Shown here one piece after another: positions 6,601 to 43,151 of a stretch of 64,000 bases of DNA. The notes under the pieces were generated by a model, which was not told the DNA's origin, did no database searches, and worked only from the letters and a program-made list of their open reading frames with translations. The position numbers were made by a program, and so were the translations under genes. Source of the stretch: Nocardia sp. NBC_00403 (GTDB lineage: Bacteria; Actinomycetota; Actinomycetes; Mycobacteriales; Mycobacteriaceae); assembly GCF_036046055.1 (NCBI RefSeq), contig NZ_CP107939.1, positions 6,324,001 to 6,388,000 on the forward strand, read 5' to 3'. How positions within the stretch are numbered: position 1 is the first letter of the stretch; each line of letters starts with the position of its first letter.

Positions 6601-7547
6601 CCTGCTGCGGCGACTCGCTCTGCCAGCCGGGCCGCGGCCCGGTCCCGCTGCTCCTCGAAACGCCTTGCCTTGACTTCCAATTCGTCCAGGTAGCCGGCCA
6701 GCACCTCGCGCGCGCGTTCCCCTTCGCCGGACAAGTCGGTGCGGTCGAAGACATTCCACGCCCGCAATATCGGACGGACCACGACATCGAGATGCTGCCG
6801 CAGGTCATAAATGCCGTTCTTGGCCAGCACGACCGCTTTACGGCGGAAGTTGGGCTGGGTGAGGCCGGGCATCTGGAACCGGGTCACGATATCCGTGATA
6901 GCACACAGCATCGCGTTGGGCGTCAGCTCCAGTGCGGCGGCACTCAGGTTGCGATAGAAGATCATATGTAGGTTCTCGTCGGCGGCGATCCGCTGCAGCA
7001 TACGCTCGGCGACGGGTTCTCCGCACACGGTTCCGGTGTTGCGATGACTGATCCGAGTCGCCAACTCCTGCAACGTGACATAGGCGACCGAGCGCAGAAA
7101 CTGCGAACCCTTCACCGGTTTCGCGACGCCGGTGGTCATGTGCGCCATCCTGGCCGCTTCCAAGGCCACGGGGTCGACCGCGCGGGTGACCACCAGGTAG
7201 TCGCGCAGCACAATCCCGTGCCGGTTCTCCTCGGCGGTCCAGCGCCCGACCCAGGTGCCCCACACGCCGTCGAGGGAGAACGAATCAGCGATCTCCCTGT
7301 GATAGGAGGGCAGATTGTCCTCGGTGAGCAGATTGGTCACCATCGCGATCTGCGCGACCTCGGAGAGCACCGATTGTCCCGGCTCCCAATCAATTCCGCC
7401 CATGGCCGCGAAATTACGGCCGTCGTCCCACGGCACATAGTCGTGCGGATTCCATGGCCTGGCTTTGCGGAGATGCTCATTGAGATTACGTTCGGCGACA
7501 GGTTCCAGTTCGCGCAGAATGTCGATATCGGTCAACGCGGTTGTCAC
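6597..7547 (-). CDS. Acyl-ACP desaturase (DesA-type diiron enzyme)
   Basis: The 316-residue protein has the plant-type acyl-ACP desaturase pattern of two diiron motifs: TEDNLPSYHREI with WTAEENRHGIVLRDY, and a later ADENLHMIFYRN. This matches DesA1/DesA2 of mycobacteria, which introduce double bases into acyl-ACP substrates for unsaturated or mycolic precursors. The GTG start at 7547 is set by an AAGGAG ribosome site six bases upstream; an upstream ATG would add a 15-residue extension with no ribosome site. It is coupled by an ATGA overlap to the secreted esterase gene and follows a truncated PucR-type gene. Confidence 0.92.
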   Translation of the reverse strand: MTTALTDIDILRELEPVAERNLNEHLRKARPWNPHDYVPWDDGRNFAAMGGIDWEPGQSVLSEVAQIAMVTNLLTEDNLPSYHREIADSFSLDGVWGTWVGRWTAEENRHGIVLRDYLVVTRAVDPVALEAARMAHMTTGVAKPVKGSQFLRSVAYVTLQELATRISHRNTGTVCGEPVAERMLQRIAADENLHMIFYRNLSAAALELTPNAMLCAITDIVTRFQMPGLTQPNFRRKAVVLAKNGIYDLRQHLDVVVRPILRAWNVFDRTDLSGEGERAREVLAGYLDELEVKARRFEEQRDRAAARLAERVAAAG

Positions 7548-32428: not shown

Positions 32429-32543
32429 ACGATCGCCACGCCCGTGACGCGTGAAAGACGTTGTGTGCGAGAAACCTTCGAACGCCCTTCGCAAAGTGCG
32501 TATCGTTGGTGGCGTCCAGCGGTTCTCGGAAGGGAGCGACACG

Positions 32544-33854
32544 TTGCGTTCACCTGCGTCCGGGTCGCACCTCACCCCGCCTGCGGCCACCCGGTCGCAC
32601 GTACCGTCGGTGCCGGAACCGCCGATCTCCCCATCCGTCGCCGCGCGCCGACTTTTTCCCGCCCTCGCCGAATCCACCGCGGTCTACCTCGACAGCGCCG
32701 CAACCACACAGAAGCCGCTGCCGGTCATCGAGGCCATCCACCGGTATCACAGCTCACGCACCGCCAACGCCGGTCGCGGCACCTACCCGTGGGCAACCAG
32801 CCTGACCGGGCAGATCAGCGGGATACGGGCGCGTACCGCGGCATTCATCGCCGCCGAACACCCTGACGAGGTCGTTTTCACCGGTGGCGCGACCGCCGCG
32901 CTCAACGCCGTCGCACTGTCCTGGGGCCTCGGGGCGCTGGAGGACGGCGACGAAATTCTGTACAGCCCACGCGATCACGCCTCCAATGTCCACCCATGGC
33001 ACCATCTGCGCCGAGTGCTGGCCCGCTTTGGTCGCCACGTCGAATTGGTCCCCTATCGGGTGACCGAACTCGGCGAGGCGGACACCGCCGACATCCTGGC
33101 CAAGCTCACCCCGCGCACCCGGTTGATCACCACCAGTCACCTGCATCACGTCTTCGGCGGACTGACCACCCTGGAGGAACTGCGCGGCAGGCTGGACCCC
33201 TCGGTGTTGCTGTGTTTCGACTGCAGCCAGAGCGGTGGGCACCTGCCGGTGGACGTGACCGAACTCGGCGCCGACTTCGCAGTGTTCGCCGCGCACAAGA
33301 TGTTCGGCGCGCCGGGGACCGGAATCCTCTACTGTCACCGTCGAATTCACGATCAACTGCTGCCCTTCCTCCCCGGTGGCAATTCCGGAGTCGAGCTCAC
33401 CGACGCCGGGCTCATCCCGACCGGTATGCCGGATCTCCTGGAGGGCGGCACCCAGAACATCCCGGGCATCCTCGCGCTCGGCAGCGCATTGGAAGTCCTG
33501 GAGTCCTTCGATATCGGGGCGATAGCCGAGCACAATCGCGAGCTCACGCTGCACCTGATCGCCAATCTGCGCCAGGTGCCCGGCCTGGAATTCCTGCCAG
33601 GGCCCGCGCACGCGCCGTGCGCGATCGGCTACGGGATCCTGTCGTTCACTCTCGCCGGAATCTCCGCCACCGACCTCGGATTCGTCCTCAGCGAGCTAGG
33701 TTTCCTCGTGCGCACCGGCGCCCACTGCACGCCGGCCGCGGCGGCCGACGATGCCGACGATTCGGTTCGGGTCAGCACGCACATCTACAACACGCTCGAG
33801 GAGATAGACCGCTTCACGGAATGTGTCATGACCATCGCCATGGAGGTTCGATGA
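32544..33854 (+). CDS. Class V aminotransferase / cysteine desulfurase-like enzyme
   Basis: The 436-residue PLP enzyme resembles SufS/CsdA: VYLDSAATTQKPLPVIEAI, RDHASNVHPWH, the PLP-lysine motif FAVFAAHKMFGAPGTGILY, and RTGAHCTPAAAADD with a cysteine at the SufS active-site position. It would release sulfur from cysteine as a persulfide, or act on a related amino acid. The TTG at 32544 is favoured because GGAAGGGAG lies seven bases upstream; a GTG at 32451 would add 31 poorly conserved residues. It overlaps the next gene by ATGA. It is the first gene of the four-gene operon. Confidence 0.88.
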   Translation: MRSPASGSHLTPPAATRSHVPSVPEPPISPSVAARRLFPALAESTAVYLDSAATTQKPLPVIEAIHRYHSSRTANAGRGTYPWATSLTGQISGIRARTAAFIAAEHPDEVVFTGGATAALNAVALSWGLGALEDGDEILYSPRDHASNVHPWHHLRRVLARFGRHVELVPYRVTELGEADTADILAKLTPRTRLITTSHLHHVFGGLTTLEELRGRLDPSVLLCFDCSQSGGHLPVDVTELGADFAVFAAHKMFGAPGTGILYCHRRIHDQLLPFLPGGNSGVELTDAGLIPTGMPDLLEGGTQNIPGILALGSALEVLESFDIGAIAEHNRELTLHLIANLRQVPGLEFLPGPAHAPCAIGYGILSFTLAGISATDLGFVLSELGFLVRTGAHCTPAAAADDADDSVRVSTHIYNTLEEIDRFTECVMTIAMEVR

Positions 33855-35137
33855 GTATCGACGGCTCCCCGCGCTACGACCGGCGGGCCGCTTCCCGAGT
33901 GCTGGCCGGACTTGCCCAGCCCGGATTGTTCGCTACGCCCATCCCTGTCCCCGCGGCTCGCAGGATCGAATACACCTGCGCCGCACTGCGTCCCGAATCG
34001 AACAGCCATCTCACCTTTTCGCAGCGGCTGTACCTGGAGCGGTTCATGCGCCCCTGCCGTCCCTACCAGGTCACCAGCGCCACACATCGGATCGCCTGGA
34101 CCGACAGCGACGGAATCCCCAACACCGGCCACTTCCGATCCGACGGGCTGGGGCCGCTCGTGCCGATCGCCATGCGCGAGACGGTGCTGACGCTCTGGCA
34201 CGCGTTGGCCGCGAATTCCGCTCTCGCCGAACGCATCAGTACACTCGGCCTGCGCGAGCACGCAGTGCTGGCGGCTACCACCACCGATCACGAACCCATG
34301 GACATCCTGCGCGTCGGCGTCGAAGCGACCGGGCGGGCATTGGCCCAGCACGCGCTGCTCGCCCGGCAGACGCCGTATCGCAGCGCGGCCGAATTCGCCG
34401 AAGGAATGCGCGATTCCGGGCTCTTCTCTTCGGTCGCGACCCGCTGGTACTGGGAGCTGCAAGCCTCGACCTATCGGCGCGGAATGATTCCGGTGACCCT
34501 GGCCACCCAGCCCGACGGGACCGTCCGCTACACCGCGGACAGCGTGGCGACGCTGCGCGCGATGAAGGACTCGACCATCGAGGATGCGCACAACGTCATG
34601 CGGCGCGCCACGAGGGTGGAGGGGTTGAGCGTCGAAGACGCGATCGCCAAATACCACGACGATCTCGACCTCATCTCCCGCCAGTACGCGCTGCTGCCGT
34701 CCAACACCCGGCCCGCCTGCCTTGCCACGATGCCACACCACCTCGGCGGCGGGCACTACACCCTGTTGCCGCTGGTGGTGGACCAGTTCGTCACCGTCTT
34801 CGGCTGGCTCGCCGGGCGCTGCGAGATCACCGAGGTAAGCGCCGAACTCGATGAACTGACCGCCGATGGCCAGGCGACCGCCGAGGACCAGGTGTTCTAC
34901 GTGCCGGACATGAACTGCAAACACTGTGTCCGCACGATCACCGGGGTGCTGGAGTCCATGGGGATCAAGGTCGTCGACATCGATCTGATCAGCAAACGGG
35001 TCGTCGCGGAATTCCGCAGCCCGCGTAATCGGGCCCGCGCATTCGAGGCCATACGCGACGGCGGCTACAACCCGGCCGCGGACAAGCCCGTGGCGATCGA
35101 TACGTCGACAACCGCCCCGTCGGAAACCGCGGTATGA
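33851..35137 (+). CDS. Unrecognised protein with C-terminal heavy-metal-associated domain
   Basis: The 428-residue protein has two parts. About residues 345-415 form an HMA domain (VFYVPDMNCKHCVRTITGVL, metal-binding Cys356 and Cys359, then a ferredoxin-like fold). The first 340 residues match no family I know; they are soluble, with conserved-looking stretches such as ATRWYWELQASTYRRGMIPV and MPHHLGGGHYTLLPLVVDQF, the latter rich in His. The start at 33851 has TGGAGG upstream and overlaps the desulfurase stop by ATGA; its own stop overlaps the next gene the same way. The HMA domain usually binds Cu(I) or similar soft metals, so this may be the metal-handling or carrier part of the pathway (inference). 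Confidence 0.75.
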   Translation: MSIDGSPRYDRRAASRVLAGLAQPGLFATPIPVPAARRIEYTCAALRPESNSHLTFSQRLYLERFMRPCRPYQVTSATHRIAWTDSDGIPNTGHFRSDGLGPLVPIAMRETVLTLWHALAANSALAERISTLGLREHAVLAATTTDHEPMDILRVGVEATGRALAQHALLARQTPYRSAAEFAEGMRDSGLFSSVATRWYWELQASTYRRGMIPVTLATQPDGTVRYTADSVATLRAMKDSTIEDAHNVMRRATRVEGLSVEDAIAKYHDDLDLISRQYALLPSNTRPACLATMPHHLGGGHYTLLPLVVDQFVTVFGWLAGRCEITEVSAELDELTADGQATAEDQVFYVPDMNCKHCVRTITGVLESMGIKVVDIDLISKRVVAEFRSPRNRARAFEAIRDGGYNPAADKPVAIDTSTTAPSETAV

Positions 35138-36729
35138 CGGCGCCGCTACCGGCGCTACCAGCAAAGATCCATCCGCTGGTGCGCGCCTTCCTCGACTCAC
35201 GCGACGCCGTCGAAGACACGGTGGTCCGCTTCGGCTCCCCGGTACATCTGGTGTTCCCACAGGTCTATGCCGAGAACCTCACACGATTCCGCGCCGTCCT
35301 CGACCTGCAAGTTTCGCACTACCGAATCTGCTACGCGCACAAGGTGAACCAGTCACGCGCGTTCGTCCGGACAGCCGAGCGTGCGGGCGTCGCCATCGAT
35401 GTCGCCTCACCACAGGAGCTGGGCAGCGCGATCGCAGCGGGTTTCGATGCCACGCGCATCGAGGTGACCGGGCCGAAAGGCGAAGCATTCCTGCGGGAGC
35501 TGATCGACCGCGGCGTCACCATCAATGTCGACAACCTGTGGGAGCTACGCCGAATTGCCGAACTGGCGGCCGACCGCACGAAAGTGCCGGTACTGCTGCG
35601 TGTTTCCGGCTTCGACGCGGCATCGGCGAGCCGGTTCGGCGTACCGCTCGCGCACCTCGACCGCGCCTTCGATCTCCTGACGGCCAGTCGCAGCCGAATC
35701 GCCTTCCTCGGCTTCGCCTTTCATATCGACTCGGGTGAACCTGCCGAACGCATCAGAGCCATCGATGCCTGCCTGGCCTTGGTCGAACAGGCCTACGACC
35801 ATGGTCTGACACCGTCGGTGCTGAATATCGGTGGCGGCTTTCGTCAGGTCTTCACCGCCGACGCGGACCGCTTCGACGGCTACGTGCTCGCGCTGCGCGA
35901 GGCACTGCTCGGCCGTGGCGCGCAGATGAGCTGGGGGAACAATACTTTCGGCTATCACGTCGACGGCGGTGCGGTGCACGGTATTCCGGTGTTCCACAAG
36001 TACGCCAATACCGTGCCCGCGACCACGATGCTCGCCGACCTGCTCGCCGCGCCACTGGAGCGCCACGGTGGGCGCACCGTGGCGCAAGTCGCCGGGGACA
36101 ATATGCTCGAATTGTGGCTGGAGCCCGGCAAGGCACTTGTCGATCATGCCGGCGTGACGGTGGCGAAGGTCGAGTTCGTCAAGGAGCTGGCCGATGGCAC
36201 CGTGGTTGTCAATCTCGACATCAGCCGTGATCTGGTGACGCCGGCGGATCAGGAGGTCATGGTCGACCCCATCGTGCTGTCCGGCAACGCCCACCGCCCG
36301 GACGCACACGTCGGCCACGCTACGGTGACACCACTGCGCCCTGTGGGCGACATCGCGACGACACCACATCCGATGCCCGAATCCGGTCCGGTGGCAGTGT
36401 ATTTCGCCGGTCGGCTGTGCCTTGAACGCGATCTCATCACCAATCACAAGGTATGGCTGCCGCAGCGGCCCCAGCCGGGCGACCTCGTGGTCTTCCCCAA
36501 TACCGGCGCATATCACACGGATCTGTCGGCGGCGACGGCCTCGATGCATCCGGTGCCGACCAAGCTTGCCGTCACCCACCGCGCGGGCAGTTTCCAGGCG
36601 TGCCGCGACGGCGATTATGAACCGCCTGTGCCGGTCGGACTGCCGCCGCACCCGTCTGCCGCACGCGGTCCGCACCGATCGCCAGTGCTGCGCCAAGTCT
36701 CCCACGCCGACAACGATGGAGCGCCGTAA
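35134..36729 (+). CDS. Y4yA-type PLP enzyme (alanine-racemase/decarboxylase fold)
   Basis: The 531-residue protein belongs to the fold III PLP group that includes ornithine, arginine and diaminopimelate decarboxylases. CYAHKVNQSRAFVR holds the PLP Lys, GVAIDVASPQELGSAIAAGF and EVTGPKGEAFLRELIDRGV form the barrel, and VLNIGGGFRQVF is the phosphate loop. The overall pattern fits the Y4yA family, whose reaction is not established; SbnH of staphyloferrin B synthesis is a distant functional analogue. It is coupled to the HMA protein (ATGA) and to the next gene by one base. Confidence 0.85.
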   Translation: MTAPLPALPAKIHPLVRAFLDSRDAVEDTVVRFGSPVHLVFPQVYAENLTRFRAVLDLQVSHYRICYAHKVNQSRAFVRTAERAGVAIDVASPQELGSAIAAGFDATRIEVTGPKGEAFLRELIDRGVTINVDNLWELRRIAELAADRTKVPVLLRVSGFDAASASRFGVPLAHLDRAFDLLTASRSRIAFLGFAFHIDSGEPAERIRAIDACLALVEQAYDHGLTPSVLNIGGGFRQVFTADADRFDGYVLALREALLGRGAQMSWGNNTFGYHVDGGAVHGIPVFHKYANTVPATTMLADLLAAPLERHGGRTVAQVAGDNMLELWLEPGKALVDHAGVTVAKVEFVKELADGTVVVNLDISRDLVTPADQEVMVDPIVLSGNAHRPDAHVGHATVTPLRPVGDIATTPHPMPESGPVAVYFAGRLCLERDLITNHKVWLPQRPQPGDLVVFPNTGAYHTDLSAATASMHPVPTKLAVTHRAGSFQACRDGDYEPPVPVGLPPHPSAARGPHRSPVLRQVSHADNDGAP

Positions 36730-38051
36730 TGCGCTATGACCACATCACCGAACTCATCGGGAACACTCCACTGCTACGCCTCGATCCTGCCGTACACGGA
36801 CTGGAGAACGTCGAGCTGTACGCGAAGCTGGAGTCGCACAATCCTTTCGGCTCGGTCAAGGACCGGGTGGCGTGGGGCATGATTCGCGACGATCTCGACG
36901 AGATCCGGGCGAACGGGCAGACCCTCATCGAGGCGTCCAGCGGCAATACCGCCAAGGCGCTGCGGATACTCGGCGCGGTGTACGGCGTCGGGCTGCGTGC
37001 GGTCACCAACCGGATCAAAGTCGCCGAGGTGCGGGATCTGTTGCAGCTGTTCGGCACCGACATCGTGGAGTTGCCCGGACTGTCCGAGTGCCCGGACCCG
37101 ACTACACCGAACGACGTGTATTCGGTCATCGAGGCGACGATGGCCAAGGATCCCGACGCGTACTACCACGCCTCGCAGTACACCAACGAGAAGAACATCG
37201 AGGCCCATCACCACGGGACCGGCCGCGAAATCCACGAGGATCTCGCCGCTGACGGCATCACTCGTGTCGACTACGTCATCGGCGGTCTCGGCACCACAGG
37301 TTCCACCCGTGGCACCGCCACCTACCTGCGCAAACACAATCCCGAATTACGCACCATCGCCGTGGTTTCCGACCGCACCGACTTCATCCCCGGCATCCGC
37401 TCGGAGAGCGAAATGTGGGACGTCGGTCTGTTCCAACCCGACTTCTACGACCGCATCGTCACCGTCGACGCCCCGAGCGCCGTCGACGCGACGCTGCGCC
37501 TTGCCACCGGCTACGGCATTCTCGCGGGCCCGACCAGTGGCGCCAGCTATGCCGCGGCACTCGAAACCTTGCGCACCACAGCGATTTCCATCACCGATGG
37601 CCCCGTCGTCGCCGTTTTCATCGTCTGCGATCGCCTGGAACCGTACCTGTCCTATATCAAGAAGCGCAGGCCGGATCTCTTCGACCGCACCGACCGCAGA
37701 CCGCAGCCCACCGCGACCGAATTGGCCGCGACACCGGTGCTGTCCCCCGACGAACTCGCAGATCTCGATCGCACCGGCCGACCGACCGTCGTCGACACCA
37801 GAGGGGCCATGGCCTACCGCATCGGCCACGTCCCCGGCGCCATCAACATTCGCGACGACCAACTCGACGACATGTTCACCCACGGTATCCCTTTCCCCCG
37901 CTCCCGCCCTGTCGTCTTCGTGTGCCCCGTCGGCGAGCTCTCGCTGCGCTTCGCGACCACCGCCCGCGCCGCCGGCTTCGACGCCTACAGTCTGGCCGGC
38001 GGCATCGTCGCCTGGCGCGACGCCGGTCTGCCCCTGGAGCGCGGCGCTTGA
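36729..38051 (+). CDS. Cysteine-synthase-like PLP enzyme fused to a rhodanese domain
   Basis: The 440-residue protein has a fold II PLP domain (about 1-315) with TELIGNTPLLRLDP, the PLP Lys in NPFGSVKDRVAW, the substrate loop EASSGNTAKALR and a GLGTTGSTRGTA phosphate loop, as in cysteine or cystathionine synthases and SbnA-like enzymes. Residues about 335-435 are a rhodanese domain with PTVVDTRGAMAYRIGHVPGA and a loop FVCPVGELSLRFA whose Cys sits at the sulfurtransferase site. The fusion suggests that sulfide or persulfide is handed between the domains, or that the rhodanese detoxifies sulfur (inference). Its ATG shares one base with the previous stop. Confidence 0.87.
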   Translation: MRYDHITELIGNTPLLRLDPAVHGLENVELYAKLESHNPFGSVKDRVAWGMIRDDLDEIRANGQTLIEASSGNTAKALRILGAVYGVGLRAVTNRIKVAEVRDLLQLFGTDIVELPGLSECPDPTTPNDVYSVIEATMAKDPDAYYHASQYTNEKNIEAHHHGTGREIHEDLAADGITRVDYVIGGLGTTGSTRGTATYLRKHNPELRTIAVVSDRTDFIPGIRSESEMWDVGLFQPDFYDRIVTVDAPSAVDATLRLATGYGILAGPTSGASYAAALETLRTTAISITDGPVVAVFIVCDRLEPYLSYIKKRRPDLFDRTDRRPQPTATELAATPVLSPDELADLDRTGRPTVVDTRGAMAYRIGHVPGAINIRDDQLDDMFTHGIPFPRSRPVVFVCPVGELSLRFATTARAAGFDAYSLAGGIVAWRDAGLPLERGA

Positions 38052-38773: not shown

Positions 38774-38942
38774 CGCTGTGTTCAGGAACACATAGGGCCC
38801 ACCACGGACAGCGATAGACCCACCTGGACGCAGGCAGCCAGCTGTAGGCGATGAATCCTGGAAAGCGCCGGACGGACGCATGCCCGGACGTCGCATTGCC
38901 AATACTTCCGTTTGGGTGTTTACTGGCCAGCGAAGGTGCCGA

Positions 38943-39102
38943 TCGTTCGCTGAGGCTCCTTCACGGATACAGGCCAGCGACCCCGAACGTCGAGAGACGC
39001 CCCGGGTCAGGACAGGTCTCCCCGGATTAAGGGGTGATCCCGATTGGCTCCCGACACCTGTCGGGTTTACGCCGTGAAGTGCCAAAGGTCTTACGAGGAG
39101 GG
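38943..39102 (+). ncRNA. M-box magnesium riboswitch upstream of mgtC
   Basis: The leader matches the M-box (ykoK) aptamer. It has TGAGGCTCCTTCACGGATAC and AGCGACCCCGAACGTC, then GAGACGCC with GGGTCAGGACAGG, and the closing CGCCGTGAAGTGCCAAAGG and TCTTACGA that pair back toward the TTCGT start. These correspond to the conserved loops that bind Mg2+ and bring L5, L4 and P2 together. It lies about 240 bases upstream of the MgtC gene. A short hairpin at 39109-39124 (CCGGCA, GGTT, TGCCGG) follows and may be part of the expression platform. High Mg2+ would be expected to lower expression (family knowledge). Confidence 0.88.
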
Positions 39103-39206
39103 CTTCCACCGGCAGGTTTGCCGGGATCCCCACGCATACTCCGCAGCGATTGCCGATACCGCGCCCGGCTTTGCCGTGCGCACAACAGCCGAAGGAGGTG
39201 AGCCGG

Positions 39207-39299: not shown

Positions 39300-39340
39300 C
39301 CTGCTGTTCGATGGTGCGCCGACCAGTCAGGGAGTGCGTG

Positions 39341-40060
39341 ATGTCAACGGTAGAAATGATCATTCGGCTGCTCGCGGGCGTCGGCCTCGGCACGGTGATC
39401 GGCTTCGAGCGGCAGTACCGGGCCAGGGGTGCGGGCCTGCGCACCAATGCCCTCGTCTCCGCGGGCGCGACGCTGTTCGTCCTGCTGTCGGCCAATGGGT
39501 TCGAGGGCGCCACCGCCGACCCGACCCGCGTCGCGGCTCAGATCGTGTCCGGAATCGGCTTTCTGGGCGCGGGCGTCATCATCCGCGACGGATTGAACGT
39601 GCGTGGGTTGAATACCGCTGCGACACTCTGGTGTTCGGCGGCTGTCGGCGCACTGGCCGGCGCGGGGATGCTCGGCACCGCGCTGGCGGGCACCGTGGCG
39701 GTCGTCGTGGTCAATATCGCCCTGCGGGCGGCCGGGCGGGCCGTGGATCGCCGGCCCGACGCATCCGATGAGCAGCCCGCTTCCTACGCCTTCGTAGCCG
39801 TGACCAACGACGAGCACGAGGCACACGTCCGCGCGCTGCTGGTGCAGGCGTTGACGCGCACCGATTTCCGGCTGGTTTCGGTGGCCAGCGCGAACACCGA
39901 CGTTCCAGGCCGGGTGGAGGTACGCGCAGAGCTGACCGGTGACCAGCGCGATGACCGGCAGATGGAGTCGGCGGTGAGCAGGCTGAGCCTGGAGCCGTCG
40001 GTGACCAGCGTCGGCTGGCACATCTCGGTGCCCGAGACGGCGGGCGGTGCGCGGGCATGA
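39341..40060 (+). CDS. mgtC: MgtC/SapB-family membrane protein
   Basis: The 239-residue protein has the MgtC N-terminal membrane domain: LLAGVGLGTVIGFERQYR with the conserved Glu and Arg, GLRTNALVSAGATLFVLLSA, VSGIGFLGAGVIIRDG, NVRGLNTAATLWCSAAVGAL and another hydrophobic helix. A soluble ACT-like C-domain follows (residues about 150-235). MgtC proteins support growth in low Mg2+ and in macrophages by affecting F1Fo ATPase and phosphate uptake (family knowledge). The ATG at 39341 has a GGGAG site. Control by the M-box upstream is strongly supported. It overlaps the next small ORF by ATGA. Confidence 0.93.
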   Translation: MSTVEMIIRLLAGVGLGTVIGFERQYRARGAGLRTNALVSAGATLFVLLSANGFEGATADPTRVAAQIVSGIGFLGAGVIIRDGLNVRGLNTAATLWCSAAVGALAGAGMLGTALAGTVAVVVVNIALRAAGRAVDRRPDASDEQPASYAFVAVTNDEHEAHVRALLVQALTRTDFRLVSVASANTDVPGRVEVRAELTGDQRDDRQMESAVSRLSLEPSVTSVGWHISVPETAGGARA

Positions 40061-40241: not shown

Positions 40242-43151
40242 CTATCGGCCTGATTGGGCGCGCCAGTAGTCGAGGTTGCTTCGGGTCAGTTGGGTGTGGG
40301 CGTTATCGGGGCCGAGGACGCGTTCCTGATCGGCGAGCAGTTGTTCGTATTCGGCGATCGCGCGGGTGATGTCACCTGCTTCGCCGTGGCAGGCGGCCAG
40401 ACAGTTGCGGGTGTAGAGGGTATCGGGGTGGTCAGGGCCGAAGATACGGATCTGGTCGGTGAGCAACGACTCGTATTCTGCTATTGCCCTTGATATTTCG
40501 CCGCCCTCCCGCAACCATCGAGCGATGCTGTTGCGGGTGCGCACGGTTTGGGCGTGGTCGCGGCCGAGCAGGCGATTCAGGTCGGTGAGCAGCTGTTCGA
40601 ACTCCGCTAGGGCGCGGTCGATTTCACCTGCCATCGCGCGGCTGCGGGCGAGATCATGTCGGGTACGCAGGGTTTCGGGGTCGGCGGTGCCGAGAATTTT
40701 CGACTGGTCCTCGATGATCTGCTCGAATTCGGTGATGGCGCGGCGCAGGCTACCGCGTTCGCTGCGCCAATACGCCAGACTGTTGCGCACGCGCAGGGTC
40801 CACGGATGGTCGGCGCCGCACACGCGGATGTAATCGATCACGAGCCGTTCGAGTTCGGCGACGGCGCGCTCCAAACGGCCGGTATGCCCCCGCCAGTCGG
40901 CGGTGTGGAGGCGAGTGGTGAGGGTGTCGATGTGCTGATCGCCGAGAACTCGCGCCTGATCACGGCCGAGGTTCTCGAGTTCTTCGATGGCGGTATTGAT
41001 GTCGCCGCTGCGGCCGCGGCTGTTCGCAAGGCGGTTGCGCACGCGCAGGGTGTCGTGATGATCCGCGCCCATAACCGCGGTGAAGCTCGGCAGCCACGCC
41101 GACCACAGGTCGCGATTGTCGGCGGCGCGCGGCGTCTGCAGTTGCTCGAGGAAGTCGAAGGCGGCCGCGGAATTGCCGAAGGCCAGGTAGTGGCGCACCG
41201 CCGCGCCGCGGGCGTAAGTGGTGGCACTCTTCGCGCCGTTGTCCTCGATCGCCGCGATGATTGCCCGGTGGCCGGCGTCGAGTTCCACTCCGAGCCTGCG
41301 GCATTCGGCCCGCAGTCCGGCCAGCAACGCGGCATGGGTCACGCCGACCGCCTCGCGGGCGGTGCCCGGTCGGCTACGAGTGACCAACGAGCCGAGACCG
41401 ACCGTGAGGTCACGCAGGCGGGCAATCTTGGTCTGGTGGCCCATCCACGCCATCGCCGCGTCGAGCAGTTCGATCGGCAGCGCAGGCCCGACGCCCGCGG
41501 CGGCTAGGACACCGAGCAGCGCGCCGATCGTCCCGGCCGTTGCCGCCCCCGCGACCTGCAGGGCGGACCCGATGCGCAAGGCCACCACATCGTCGAGGTC
41601 GACGTCGCGCACCATCGCCTGATCGGCCACCGCACCGGGGATCTCGGTCAGCAGCCGAGCCATCAGCCAGCCAGCTGTCACCGAGTCGGAATCATTACGG
41701 GTCGAAGGTGTTTCGGCCAAGAGCACATCCGTCCATGCTGTCCACTCGCGCTCGTCGAGCACCATACGACTGTCCCGCGCCGACTCCACCGTGGCGGCGA
41801 TGTCCTCGGCGACCGGCTCGGAGACCACGATGCGGTGCATGTGGGCGAGCGCCGGAGCATCCTCGATCCCCATGCCCTGCCGAATACCGAGGATGACCCG
41901 CACCTGACGAAGATCATCGCTGCGCGTCAGATCGGCAAAGACATCGATCAGCAATTGTCGGGTGCCGACTTCCGGATGGTTGAGCCCGTCGACGATCACG
42001 GTGACCCGTCTACCGTCTTTTGCCAACCGCGCCAACGGATGTCGAACCTCGATGTCGAACACGTCATGAGCGGTGCCGTTGTGTTCATCGAGCTCGCGTG
42101 CGGTCCGCGCGGCCGCGGCGAACCCGGGCACCCTGGCAGTCAACTGCGCCGACAGCTCGGCGGCCACCGCGTCGACCGAACTGTTCACCGTCAAAAAGAT
42201 AGCGGCAGTGATGTATTCGGGCGAGATGGGCAGAGTGTCGACGAGACTGGGCCGGATGAGCATGGCCAGCAGGGTCGACTTGCCGACACCCGGCGGGCCG
42301 ATGACGCCGCGCAATCGGTTGCTGCCGGCTTCGATGATGTCGTCGAGGGTCTCCCTCACCGCGGCGGTGAGCAACAACCTACTGGTCAGCTGGTCGACGA
42401 AACCTGCGGCCGGCCGGCCGGTGACCGCATCCCGGCGGCGTGCGATGTTCGGCACCAGCCACAGGCCGGGGTCACCGCCCTCGCTGACGGTGACAGTGCC
42501 CGAGGTGAAGGACAGATGTTCGGGCTGCTGCCTGGTGCACACCGTCGCAATCGGGTCGACCAGATCCGACGGCAGCAGATTCTCGCCACGCAATGGCAGC
42601 CCGGAAGCGAAGGTGGACAACATCGTTCGAGTGAAGCAGCCCGCATACGCGGGGCCGTCACCCGCGGCGACCAACAGCTCCATCCGACCCGCCGCCCTGG
42701 CCAGCAATTCCGGCCATCGACGGGCCGCGCCGAAGAGGCCCTGCTCGGTCTCGCACGCATCCACCAGCACCACCAGCCCATCGAGCGCCGACCTGTTCAG
42801 TCGCTCCCGAATCTCCTGGGTGAGATGAAATGCCGTGTGGGAGTCCGGCATCGACGGCGAATCCTGACCGAGCAGAAAGAAGTCCTCGGCACTGGTCGCC
42901 GTCCCGTGCCCGATGAACCCGATCAAAAGTGTGGCCTGCTGCTGCGCTGCGGCTGCGAATGCCACTCCGACCGCCGAACTGAGCTGCGCTGCAGTCGGAT
43001 TGAGCAGTGGCCCGTCGGCATCGGTCGCGGCTTGCCAACCGCCGGCCGCTTTCAAACTCTCGTACAGACCGGTCGCGAGTTCGCCGGTGAACCCCAGTTC
43101 CCCCAGCGCCCCGCATTCGGATCCGACGACCAGCGCGAGCCTTCCTCCCAT
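40242..43151 (-). CDS. Caspase-like protease / STAND NTPase / TPR-repeat protein
   Basis: The 969-residue protein has three parts. Residues 1-230 are a caspase-like protease with His82 (LIGFIGHGTATSAEDFF) and Cys133 (VLVDACETEQG). Residues about 260-560 are a NACHT/STAND NTPase with P-loop GPPGVGKSTLL (Lys291) and Walker B VTVIVDGLNHPE near 400. About 720-969 hold six kinesin-light-chain-type TPR units of about 42 residues (pattern GPDHPDTLYTRNCLA). This is the plan of bacterial NLR-like defence or cell-death proteins: repeats sense, the NTPase oligomerises, the protease acts. It is divergent from a serine-hydrolase gene. A duplicate of its 5' end lies directly upstream. Confidence 0.85.
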   Translation of the reverse strand: MGGRLALVVGSECGALGELGFTGELATGLYESLKAAGGWQAATDADGPLLNPTAAQLSSAVGVAFAAAAQQQATLLIGFIGHGTATSAEDFFLLGQDSPSMPDSHTAFHLTQEIRERLNRSALDGLVVLVDACETEQGLFGAARRWPELLARAAGRMELLVAAGDGPAYAGCFTRTMLSTFASGLPLRGENLLPSDLVDPIATVCTRQQPEHLSFTSGTVTVSEGGDPGLWLVPNIARRRDAVTGRPAAGFVDQLTSRLLLTAAVRETLDDIIEAGSNRLRGVIGPPGVGKSTLLAMLIRPSLVDTLPISPEYITAAIFLTVNSSVDAVAAELSAQLTARVPGFAAAARTARELDEHNGTAHDVFDIEVRHPLARLAKDGRRVTVIVDGLNHPEVGTRQLLIDVFADLTRSDDLRQVRVILGIRQGMGIEDAPALAHMHRIVVSEPVAEDIAATVESARDSRMVLDEREWTAWTDVLLAETPSTRNDSDSVTAGWLMARLLTEIPGAVADQAMVRDVDLDDVVALRIGSALQVAGAATAGTIGALLGVLAAAGVGPALPIELLDAAMAWMGHQTKIARLRDLTVGLGSLVTRSRPGTAREAVGVTHAALLAGLRAECRRLGVELDAGHRAIIAAIEDNGAKSATTYARGAAVRHYLAFGNSAAAFDFLEQLQTPRAADNRDLWSAWLPSFTAVMGADHHDTLRVRNRLANSRGRSGDINTAIEELENLGRDQARVLGDQHIDTLTTRLHTADWRGHTGRLERAVAELERLVIDYIRVCGADHPWTLRVRNSLAYWRSERGSLRRAITEFEQIIEDQSKILGTADPETLRTRHDLARSRAMAGEIDRALAEFEQLLTDLNRLLGRDHAQTVRTRNSIARWLREGGEISRAIAEYESLLTDQIRIFGPDHPDTLYTRNCLAACHGEAGDITRAIAEYEQLLADQERVLGPDNAHTQLTRSNLDYWRAQSGR

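What the first reader, a model, noticed from the sequence alone, without database searches (positions are those of the whole stretch)
32544..38051. Four-gene PLP/sulfur/HMA operon with no known pathway
Four genes are joined by overlaps of 1-4 bases: a cysteine desulfurase-like enzyme, a protein with an unknown 340-residue domain plus a metal-binding HMA domain, a Y4yA-type PLP enzyme, and a cysteine-synthase/rhodanese fusion. Overlaps this tight imply a single stoichiometric pathway. Sulfur release (desulfurase), sulfur transfer (rhodanese), two further PLP steps and a metal-binding domain in one operon suggest a sulfur-containing amino acid or metal-chelating metabolite. SbnA/SbnH-type chemistry in staphyloferrin B is the nearest analogue I know, but it lacks the desulfurase and HMA parts.
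Basis: partly seen in the sequence, partly recalled or inferred. Interest (0 to 1): 0.85.

Follow-up and report, generated by a model that had tools for sequence, protein, structure and literature searches.

The report
Nocardia-wide sulfur-relay and copper-domain operon
Nocardia genomes carry a protein of unknown fold with a copper-chaperone domain, usually in one operon with three vitamin-B6 enzymes that look like a sulfur relay; the three enzymes also occur as a separate operon that seems zinc-linked, which suggests an unknown sulfur metabolite tied to metal handling.

Summary
In detail: four genes (32544-38051, +) overlap by 4, 4 and 1 bases. The second protein (G2) is in 128 of 128 sampled Nocardia genomes; outside Nocardia I saw it in three genomes. 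Its N-terminal domain matched no known family or solved fold; its copper-chaperone-type domain keeps C-x-H-C in all 83 copies examined. In one Micromonosporaceae genome a G2 relative precedes csoR-, copZ- and copA-like genes.
The other three enzymes (desulfurase G1, Y4yA decarboxylase G3, CysM-rhodanese fusion G4) form a separable module: 30 of 30 examined Streptomyces loci hold Y4yA, CysM-rhodanese, desulfurase and a methyltransferase, with a conserved Zur-box-like site before the methyltransferase. Catalytic residues are kept in both forms.
18 of 128 Nocardia genomes hold both forms. G1 is clearly lost in 7 of these (2 more undetermined) but in 0 (worst case 1) of 109 scored genomes with the first form only, while G2 and G4 persist. 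The second desulfurase may substitute for G1.
Best reading: G1 passes persulfide to G4's rhodanese, G4 adds sulfur to a serine-derived intermediate, G3 decarboxylates, G2 handles copper. Product, metal and G2 chemistry are unproven.

The parts
32450..32475 (+). conserved upstream box (GTGAAAGNCGTTG..CGAGAAACC)
   Evidence: read by eye in most G1 upstream regions printed
32477..32508 (+). conserved promoter-like element TTCGA-N16-GCGTATCGTTG
   Evidence: core found near the G1 (or G2) start in 76 of 80 loci; pattern in 21 of 40 Nocardia genomes, 22 sites, 20 of them just upstream of this operon by coordinates, reversed control 0 in all 40
32544..33854 (+). G1: SufS/CsdA-like cysteine desulfurase
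   Evidence: Pfam Aminotran_5 2.7e-84; PLP Lys K252 and Cys C395 conserved
33851..34864 (+). G2 N-terminal domain, family and fold unknown
34886..35083 (+). G2 C-terminal HMA domain, CopZ-like, C356-K-H358-C359
35134..36729 (+). G3: Y4yA-type fold-III PLP decarboxylase
   Evidence: Pfam Orn_Arg_deC_N 3.5e-27; K70, H197, C429, D433 conserved in copies covered
36729..37652 (+). G4 N-terminal CysM-like PLP domain
   Evidence: Pfam PALP 9.1e-54; K44 and R224 conserved in copies covered; R224 aligns with an Arg of M. tuberculosis CysM
37743..38021 (+). G4 C-terminal rhodanese domain, Cys399
   Evidence: Pfam Rhodanese 7.8e-16; Cys in 78 of 78 type A and 20 of 20 type B copies covered

Best explanation
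The operon makes a small sulfur-containing amino compound linked to metal handling. Proposed steps: (1) G1 takes sulfur from cysteine and holds it as a persulfide; (2) the persulfide passes to the Cys of the rhodanese domain fused to G4; (3) the CysM-like domain of G4 forms an aminoacrylate, probably from O-phosphoserine, and adds the delivered sulfur; (4) G3 decarboxylates the product to an aminoethyl thiol or persulfide type of compound; (5) G2, a new protein family with its own copper-chaperone domain, binds, loads or transforms that product with Cu(I). Shown: operon, conservation, active sites, separability of the modules, and loss of G1 seen only where a second desulfurase exists (one frameshifted copy aside). 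Inferred: every reaction, the product, and copper as the metal.
For: Conservation over the genus. The trio without G2 keeps one order with a methyltransferase in 30 of 30 Streptomyces loci examined, of 34 hits in 150 genomes. Catalytic residues kept in both forms, with a shared loop SSGNTAKA (Lys76 in 79 of 80 type A and 20 of 20 type B copies covered). Arg224 is invariant, 79 of 79 and 25 of 25, and aligns with an Arg of M. tuberculosis CysM that I recall as the O-phosphoserine reader. G1 lost with the promoter kept in 7 of 16 scorable genomes holding the second operon against 0 of 108 fetched genomes without it (Fisher 1.5e-7; worst case 7 of 18 against 1 of 109, 2.6e-6). Desulfurase-to-rhodanese relay is documented (PMC8931425, abstract read). 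Metal links: G2 HMA; G2 relative before csoR-, copZ-, copA-like genes; CopZ-like gene before G1 in another genus of the family; Y4yA/CysK beside RicR-like genes on pMAH135; Zur-like boxes at the sister operon.
Against: No CsoR, CopA or multicopper oxidase relative, and no CopZ relative other than G2's own domain, was found in the flanks held of the 80 Nocardia/Planosporangium loci or in the window; no Zur-like box (best 5 mismatches) and no exact 6-base inverted repeat sits at the Nocardia promoter. So copper rests on the HMA domain and on outgroups. The sister operon looks zinc-linked instead. No transporter is part of the operon, so a secreted metallophore would need one elsewhere. A desulfurase feeding a cysteine synthase would be futile unless the product differs from cysteine. 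The loss pattern is weakly replicated on the tree: 4 losses; independent pairs 3 agree, 0 oppose, 1 no difference, sign test p 0.25, underpowered. One genome without the second operon (G421) has a frameshifted G1. In two genomes (G414, G503) G2 and G4 lie far apart and I could not see where G1 is.
Confidence: 0.43

Rival explanations
1. A cysteine or persulfide buffer for copper stress: the operon raises reactive sulfur (Cys-SSH, H2S) or cysteine to bind Cu(I) inside the cell, and G2 hands copper to it. No secreted natural product.
For: No transporter or ligase among the four genes. cysK2 is in the M. tuberculosis RicR copper regulon (PMC10470581, passages) and its product is cited as an O-phosphoserine-dependent S-sulfocysteine synthase (PMC9048740, passages and reference title). 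G1 is replaceable.
Against: It does not explain the constant Y4yA decarboxylase, which would remove the carboxyl group of the amino acid made.
Confidence: 0.25
2. A diamine/aminopolycarboxylate metallophore of the EDDS or staphyloferrin B kind, in which CysK-type and Y4yA-type enzymes make a diaminopropionate-derived ethylenediamine unit, and the sulfur parts are accessory.
For: Y4yA pairs with SbnA-like and SbnB-like genes (below NCBIfam cut-offs) plus MATE on pMAH135 and with a cysteine synthase-type gene, octopine/nopaline-type dehydrogenase and IucA/IucC on pNGR234a. Zur controls EDDS biosynthesis in Amycolatopsis japonicum (PMC6103462, passage read; that its cluster holds these gene types is recalled).
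Against: G4 scores 146.6 bits with the SbnA model, cut-off 349.95. The constant genes of the type A and type B operons hold no SbnB-like or NIS gene. Rhodanese and desulfurase are the constant parts.
Confidence: 0.12
3. Metal-stress supply of sulfur for iron-sulfur cluster or cofactor repair, with the G4 rhodanese as carrier and no small product.
For: G1 is SufS/CsdA-like; rhodaneses are general sulfur carriers (general knowledge).
Against: Needs neither the CysM domain nor Y4yA, both with intact active sites in the copies covered.
Confidence: 0.1

Closest known systems
Staphyloferrin B / SbnA-SbnH and rhizobial y4xM-y4yA siderophore-type clusters
   Same: CysK-superfamily enzyme next to a fold-III PLP decarboxylase (Y4yA)
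   Different: no NIS synthetase, dehydrogenase or exporter among the four genes; has desulfurase, rhodanese fusion, HMA protein
M. avium pMAH135 cluster (SbnA-like, SbnB-like, Y4yA, MATE) beside a RicR-like regulator and multicopper oxidase; resembles EDDS clusters as recalled
   Same: Y4yA + CysK type in a copper-gene neighbourhood in Mycobacteriaceae
   Different: SbnB-like dehydrogenase in place of desulfurase and rhodanese; Y4yA about 30% identical
M. tuberculosis CysM-CysO-MoeZ cysteine route (recalled) and CysK2
   Same: CysM-type enzyme taking sulfur from a protein donor; CysM Arg conserved; CysK2 is copper-regulated
   Different: donor here is a fused rhodanese, expected to carry persulfide rather than thiocarboxylate; a decarboxylase follows
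CopZ/Atx1 copper chaperones
   Same: HMA fold and two-cysteine site (MxCxHC)
   Different: fused to a 340-residue domain of unknown family

Membership tests
Staphyloferrin B-type biosynthesis | SbnA-type enzyme above the TIGR03945 cut-off | tested here: not met
   146.6 bits against cut-off 349.95
Staphyloferrin B-type biosynthesis | NIS (IucA/IucC) synthetase and SbnB dehydrogenase in the cluster | tested here: not met
   none among the ten ORFs scanned between 30602 and 44399, the operon's four included
Staphyloferrin B-type biosynthesis | fold-III PLP decarboxylase | tested here: met
   K70, C429, D433 conserved
SufS/CsdA cysteine desulfurase | PLP lysine and catalytic cysteine | tested here: met
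   K in 75 of 75, C in 74 of 74 type A copies covered (of 82 loci) and 20 of 20 type B copies
SufS/CsdA cysteine desulfurase | score above an NCBIfam cut-off | tested here: not met
   sufS 296.4 against 475.1
CysM (O-phosphoserine sulfhydrylase) | PLP lysine and the Arg aligned to that of M. tuberculosis CysM (its role is recalled) | tested here: met
CysM (O-phosphoserine sulfhydrylase) | score above the cysM cut-off | tested here: not met
   158.1 against 394.2
Copper chaperone (CopZ/HMA) | HMA fold with two cysteines | tested here: met
   named CopZ models are matched below their cut-offs
Copper chaperone (CopZ/HMA) | Cu(I) binding | not testable with these tools
   needs purified protein
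CsoR/RicR copper regulon | CsoR-type operator at the Nocardia promoter | tested here: inconclusive
   no exact 6-base inverted repeat with a 0-10 base gap in 32429-32560; no operator model was used
Zur regulon (type B operon only) | 6-3-6 Zur-type box at the operon | tested here: inconclusive
   Nocardia type B: boxes with <=2 mismatches in 5 of 6 loci. Streptomyces: site TGRNAACCGTTKYCA before the methyltransferase in 15 of 19 loci, weaker in 4; scored against published box types only, 11 to 14 of 15 match, with no control window as good in 9 of 19 loci and under 1% in 15 of 19. Binding not tested
Known fold or family for G2 N-domain | significant profile or fold match | tested here: inconclusive
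   none found, which does not exclude one

The most novel reading that the evidence does not exclude
A genus-wide pathway to an undescribed class of sulfur metallophore or copper thiol: a desulfurase charges a rhodanese built into a CysM-type synthase, Y4yA decarboxylates the product, and a new copper protein family with a built-in chaperone finishes it. Streptomyces use the same core, perhaps under zinc control, with a methyltransferase as the finishing step.
Probability: 0.35. Interest if true: 0.88.

Novelty: new variant of a known kind. Interest (0 to 1): 0.7.

Why it matters
G2 is a candidate marker of the genus Nocardia (128 of 128 sampled genomes; named carriers include N. brasiliensis and N. 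farcinica) with no function that I found assigned. The operon couples cysteine sulfur to copper or zinc handling through a fused protein sulfur donor, defines a protein family without a recognised fold, and offers a natural genetic experiment: repeated loss of one desulfurase where a related one is present. If right, it gives a testable route to an undiscovered sulfur metabolite and links the copper-regulated CysK2 of mycobacteria to a wider set of Y4yA/CysK metal clusters.

Tried and rejected
Plasmid records gave no G2 match at E 1e-5. Fold search with the whole G2 model is filled by the HMA domain; the N-domain alone gives no significant match. Weak Pfam matches to the N-domain (US22, RecO_C, Dyp_perox_N, HTH_Crp_2; E 0.007-0.07; 1 to 4 of 65 members) were treated as chance. 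Paulomycin isothiocyanate biosynthesis was considered because its cluster has a desulfurase; in that paper's main text the words rhodanese, cysteine synthase and decarboxylase do not occur, so I dropped it. Encapsulin cargo desulfurase was considered; G1 scores 243.8 against a cut-off of 800.

Rejected: chance assembly of the operon; TetR, CBS and PucR neighbours as parts of the system, because their presence and distance vary over the loci; Zur control of the Nocardia type A operon (best box 5 mismatches); a wide regulon for its exact promoter pattern (2 of 22 sites elsewhere; a looser motif was not tried).

The box consensus included one string taken from these loci; one search repeats the test with published box types only and is weaker. 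I lowered the main confidence from 0.45 to 0.43 for these. For the tree L077 was entered as carrying the second operon on the strength of its desulfurase match alone. L148 was dropped because it is the same record as L199.

Literature: papers were seen only as listings, abstracts or passages. 'y4ya' or 'y4xp' occur in 4 papers (by title rhizobia, type III secretion or NEL ligases); [quoted passage not shown] Among the rows listed by searches (15 of 271; 12 of 72; 10 of 21; 7 of 7) I saw none on this operon; subscription papers are mostly not held, so this is weak evidence of novelty. EDDS papers were not held.
Full report
OBSERVATION. The window is G000:C1:6324001-6388000 of an 8.7 Mb single-contig genome. 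The best relatives of G2 are nearly all Nocardia, so I take the window's genus (g1) to be Nocardia. Four genes on the + strand overlap by 4, 4 and 1 bases: G1 32544-33854, G2 33851-35137, G3 35134-36729, G4 36729-38051. Pfam gives aminotransferase V; HMA only, at residues 348-391 of G2; Orn/DAP/Arg decarboxylase; PALP plus rhodanese. None of the four reaches the cut-off of a named NCBIfam family.

CONSERVATION. A scan of one genome for each of 84,980 species found 103 stretches encoding G2 relatives; the best 80 were kept and shown, 79 Nocardia and one Planosporangium. In these loci G2-G3-G4 are collinear; G3 was found in 79 of 80 and G4 in 78 of 80, the misses being contig ends. The G2 profile is present in 128 of 128 Nocardia genomes, in 3 of 396 genomes spread over the phylum, all three of the window's genus, in 16 of 201 genomes of the family, 15 of the genus and one other, G683, and in 2 of 150 of the Planosporangium family, one being Planosporangium itself. 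G4-like proteins are in 127 of 128 Nocardia genomes; the one miss (G403) has G2 near its contig end. Flanking genes differ between clades.

PROMOTER. Upstream of G1 a motif TTCGA-N(15-16)-GCGTATCGT(T/G)G with an upstream GAAA..CGTTG box recurs; its core was found in 76 of 80 loci (not in L004, which starts at G2, L047, L067 or L076). As a pattern it is in 21 of 40 Nocardia genomes, 22 sites, 20 of them just upstream of this operon by coordinates, with 0 hits of the reversed control. No Zur-like box (best 5 mismatches) and no exact 6-base inverted repeat was found there.

THE SEPARABLE MODULE. Y4yA relatives in other genomes led to a second operon (type B): Y4yA, CysM-rhodanese, desulfurase. 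In genus g7, which I take to be Streptomyces because G864:C2 has the length of the Streptomyces record NZ_CP108509.1, 34 of 150 genomes have the fusion; 30 of these 34 loci were fetched and all 30 show Y4yA, fusion, desulfurase and a SAM methyltransferase, with no G2. In 20 loci no further neighbour is constant. Before the methyltransferase a site TGRNAACCGTTKYCA stands in 15 of 19 loci scored and a weaker one in 4 (one string of that consensus came from these loci). Against published mycobacterial Zur boxes alone, such as TGAAAATCGTTTTCA (PMC4298942, passage read), the sites match 11 to 14 of 15 bases; in 9 of 19 loci no control window did as well, in 15 of 19 fewer than 1% did. In Nocardia type B loci, boxes with at most 2 mismatches occur in 5 of 6 (L330 has only 3-mismatch sites), against 1 in 1.6 Mb of type A loci. 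Neighbours there include Fur-family regulators (L136, L329), a thiazolinyl imide reductase and P450 (L136) and a FecCD-type uptake system (L330). Catalytic residues of G1, G3 and G4 are kept in every copy covered of both types, including G1 Cys395 and G4 Cys399. Lys76 of the loop SSGNTAKA is shared (99 of 100 copies covered). Arg224 is invariant (79 of 79 and 25 of 25) and aligns with an Arg of M. tuberculosis CysM, recalled as reading O-phosphoserine.

A NATURAL EXPERIMENT. In L027, L064 and L073 G1 is reduced to an in-frame remnant, and in L077 and L078 it is gone, while G2, G3 and G4 remain. I fetched the region upstream of G2 in the 127 other genomes of the 128-genome sample. 18 genomes also carry type B (second fusion 68-73% identical to the Streptomyces one). 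No full G1 stands upstream of G2 in 9 of these 18. In 7 of the 9 the promoter core is still there and G4 lies close by, so G1 is lost; in G414 and G503 G2 and G4 are far apart, and G1 could be elsewhere. For four of the loss lineages a whole-genome search found no other G1 above 42% identity. Of the 109 fetched genomes without type B, 108 have full G1 coverage and 1 (G440) cannot be scored, being at a contig end; the window's own genome is intact. Fisher: 1.5e-7 for 7 of 16 against 0 of 108; worst case 2.6e-6 for 7 of 18 against 1 of 109. These tests ignore kinship. In the 6 Nocardia type B loci read, the desulfurase lies next to the fusion gene, and the 40-42% desulfurase of the loss genomes lies at those places (matched by contig number and coordinates). 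Loss footprints differ between lineages. I read this as replacement of G1 by the type B desulfurase, which fits a shared sulfur-relay role; a general relaxation of the operon in these genomes is the alternative.

MECHANISM. Desulfurase to rhodanese transfer is a documented relay, including natural fusions (PMC8931425, abstract). A CysM-type enzyme with its own persulfide carrier would add that sulfur to a serine-derived aminoacrylate. If the product were only cysteine the cycle would be futile, so I expect a persulfide, thiol or thioether product, decarboxylated by G3. In type B the methyltransferase would cap it; in type A G2 would bind or transform it with copper. cysK2 of M. tuberculosis is a RicR target (PMC10470581) and its enzyme is cited as an O-phosphoserine-dependent S-sulfocysteine synthase (PMC9048740), and on M. 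avium pMAH135 SbnA-like, SbnB-like, Y4yA and MATE genes lie beside a RicR-like regulator and a multicopper oxidase. These are context, not proof.

VERDICT. A real, conserved and, as far as my limited literature searches go, undescribed system. The four-gene unit is best seen as a three-enzyme sulfur/PLP core plus a copper-type partner. Product, metal and the chemistry of G2 remain open.

Noticed in passing
window 38935-39106 (+): M-box magnesium riboswitch (120.7 bits) upstream of an MgtC-family gene at 39311-40060.
   Followed up: no
window 7162-7229 (+): Match to ASdes, an sRNA family named from tuberculosis bacteria (76.9 bits), here in what I take to be Nocardia.
   Followed up: no
window 40242-43151 (-): 969-aa protein with FxSxx-type TPRs (142.5 bits, cut-off 300) and a weak match to EACC1-associated caspase domains; possibly a conflict or immunity protein.
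   Followed up: no
L002 8042-8566 (-), L070 8122-8562 (-); cluster of 34 loci: Divergent gene between the CBS gene and G1 whose two scanned members match pyridoxamine 5'-phosphate oxidase (PF01243): a possible B6-related neighbour of the PLP operon. The window has only 115 bases there.
   Followed up: partly
L149 5262-10753: M. avium pMAH135: SbnA-like, SbnB-like, Y4yA and MATE genes beside a multicopper oxidase and RicR/CsoR-type regulators; looks like an EDDS-type chelator cluster (recalled) in a copper island.
   Followed up: partly
L153 6593-7023: Pieces of a degenerate second copy of G2 in genome G489.
   Followed up: no
L330 11394-14310 (-): FecCD permease, ATPase and periplasmic binding protein genes next to a Nocardia type B operon, with a weak (3-mismatch) Zur-like box before them.
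   Followed up: partly
L134 10031-10400 (-): A further small HMA reading frame seems to lie just upstream of the G2 relative in the copper operon (read by eye from the sequence printed).
   Followed up: no
L184, L185, L186, L197, L199 and similar: In 4 to 6 of 20 Streptomyces loci small genes that look by eye like alternative ribosomal proteins (S14, L28) and a CobW-type GTPase lie 4-9 kb from the type B operon; such genes are typical Zur targets (PMC6103462, passage).
   Followed up: no
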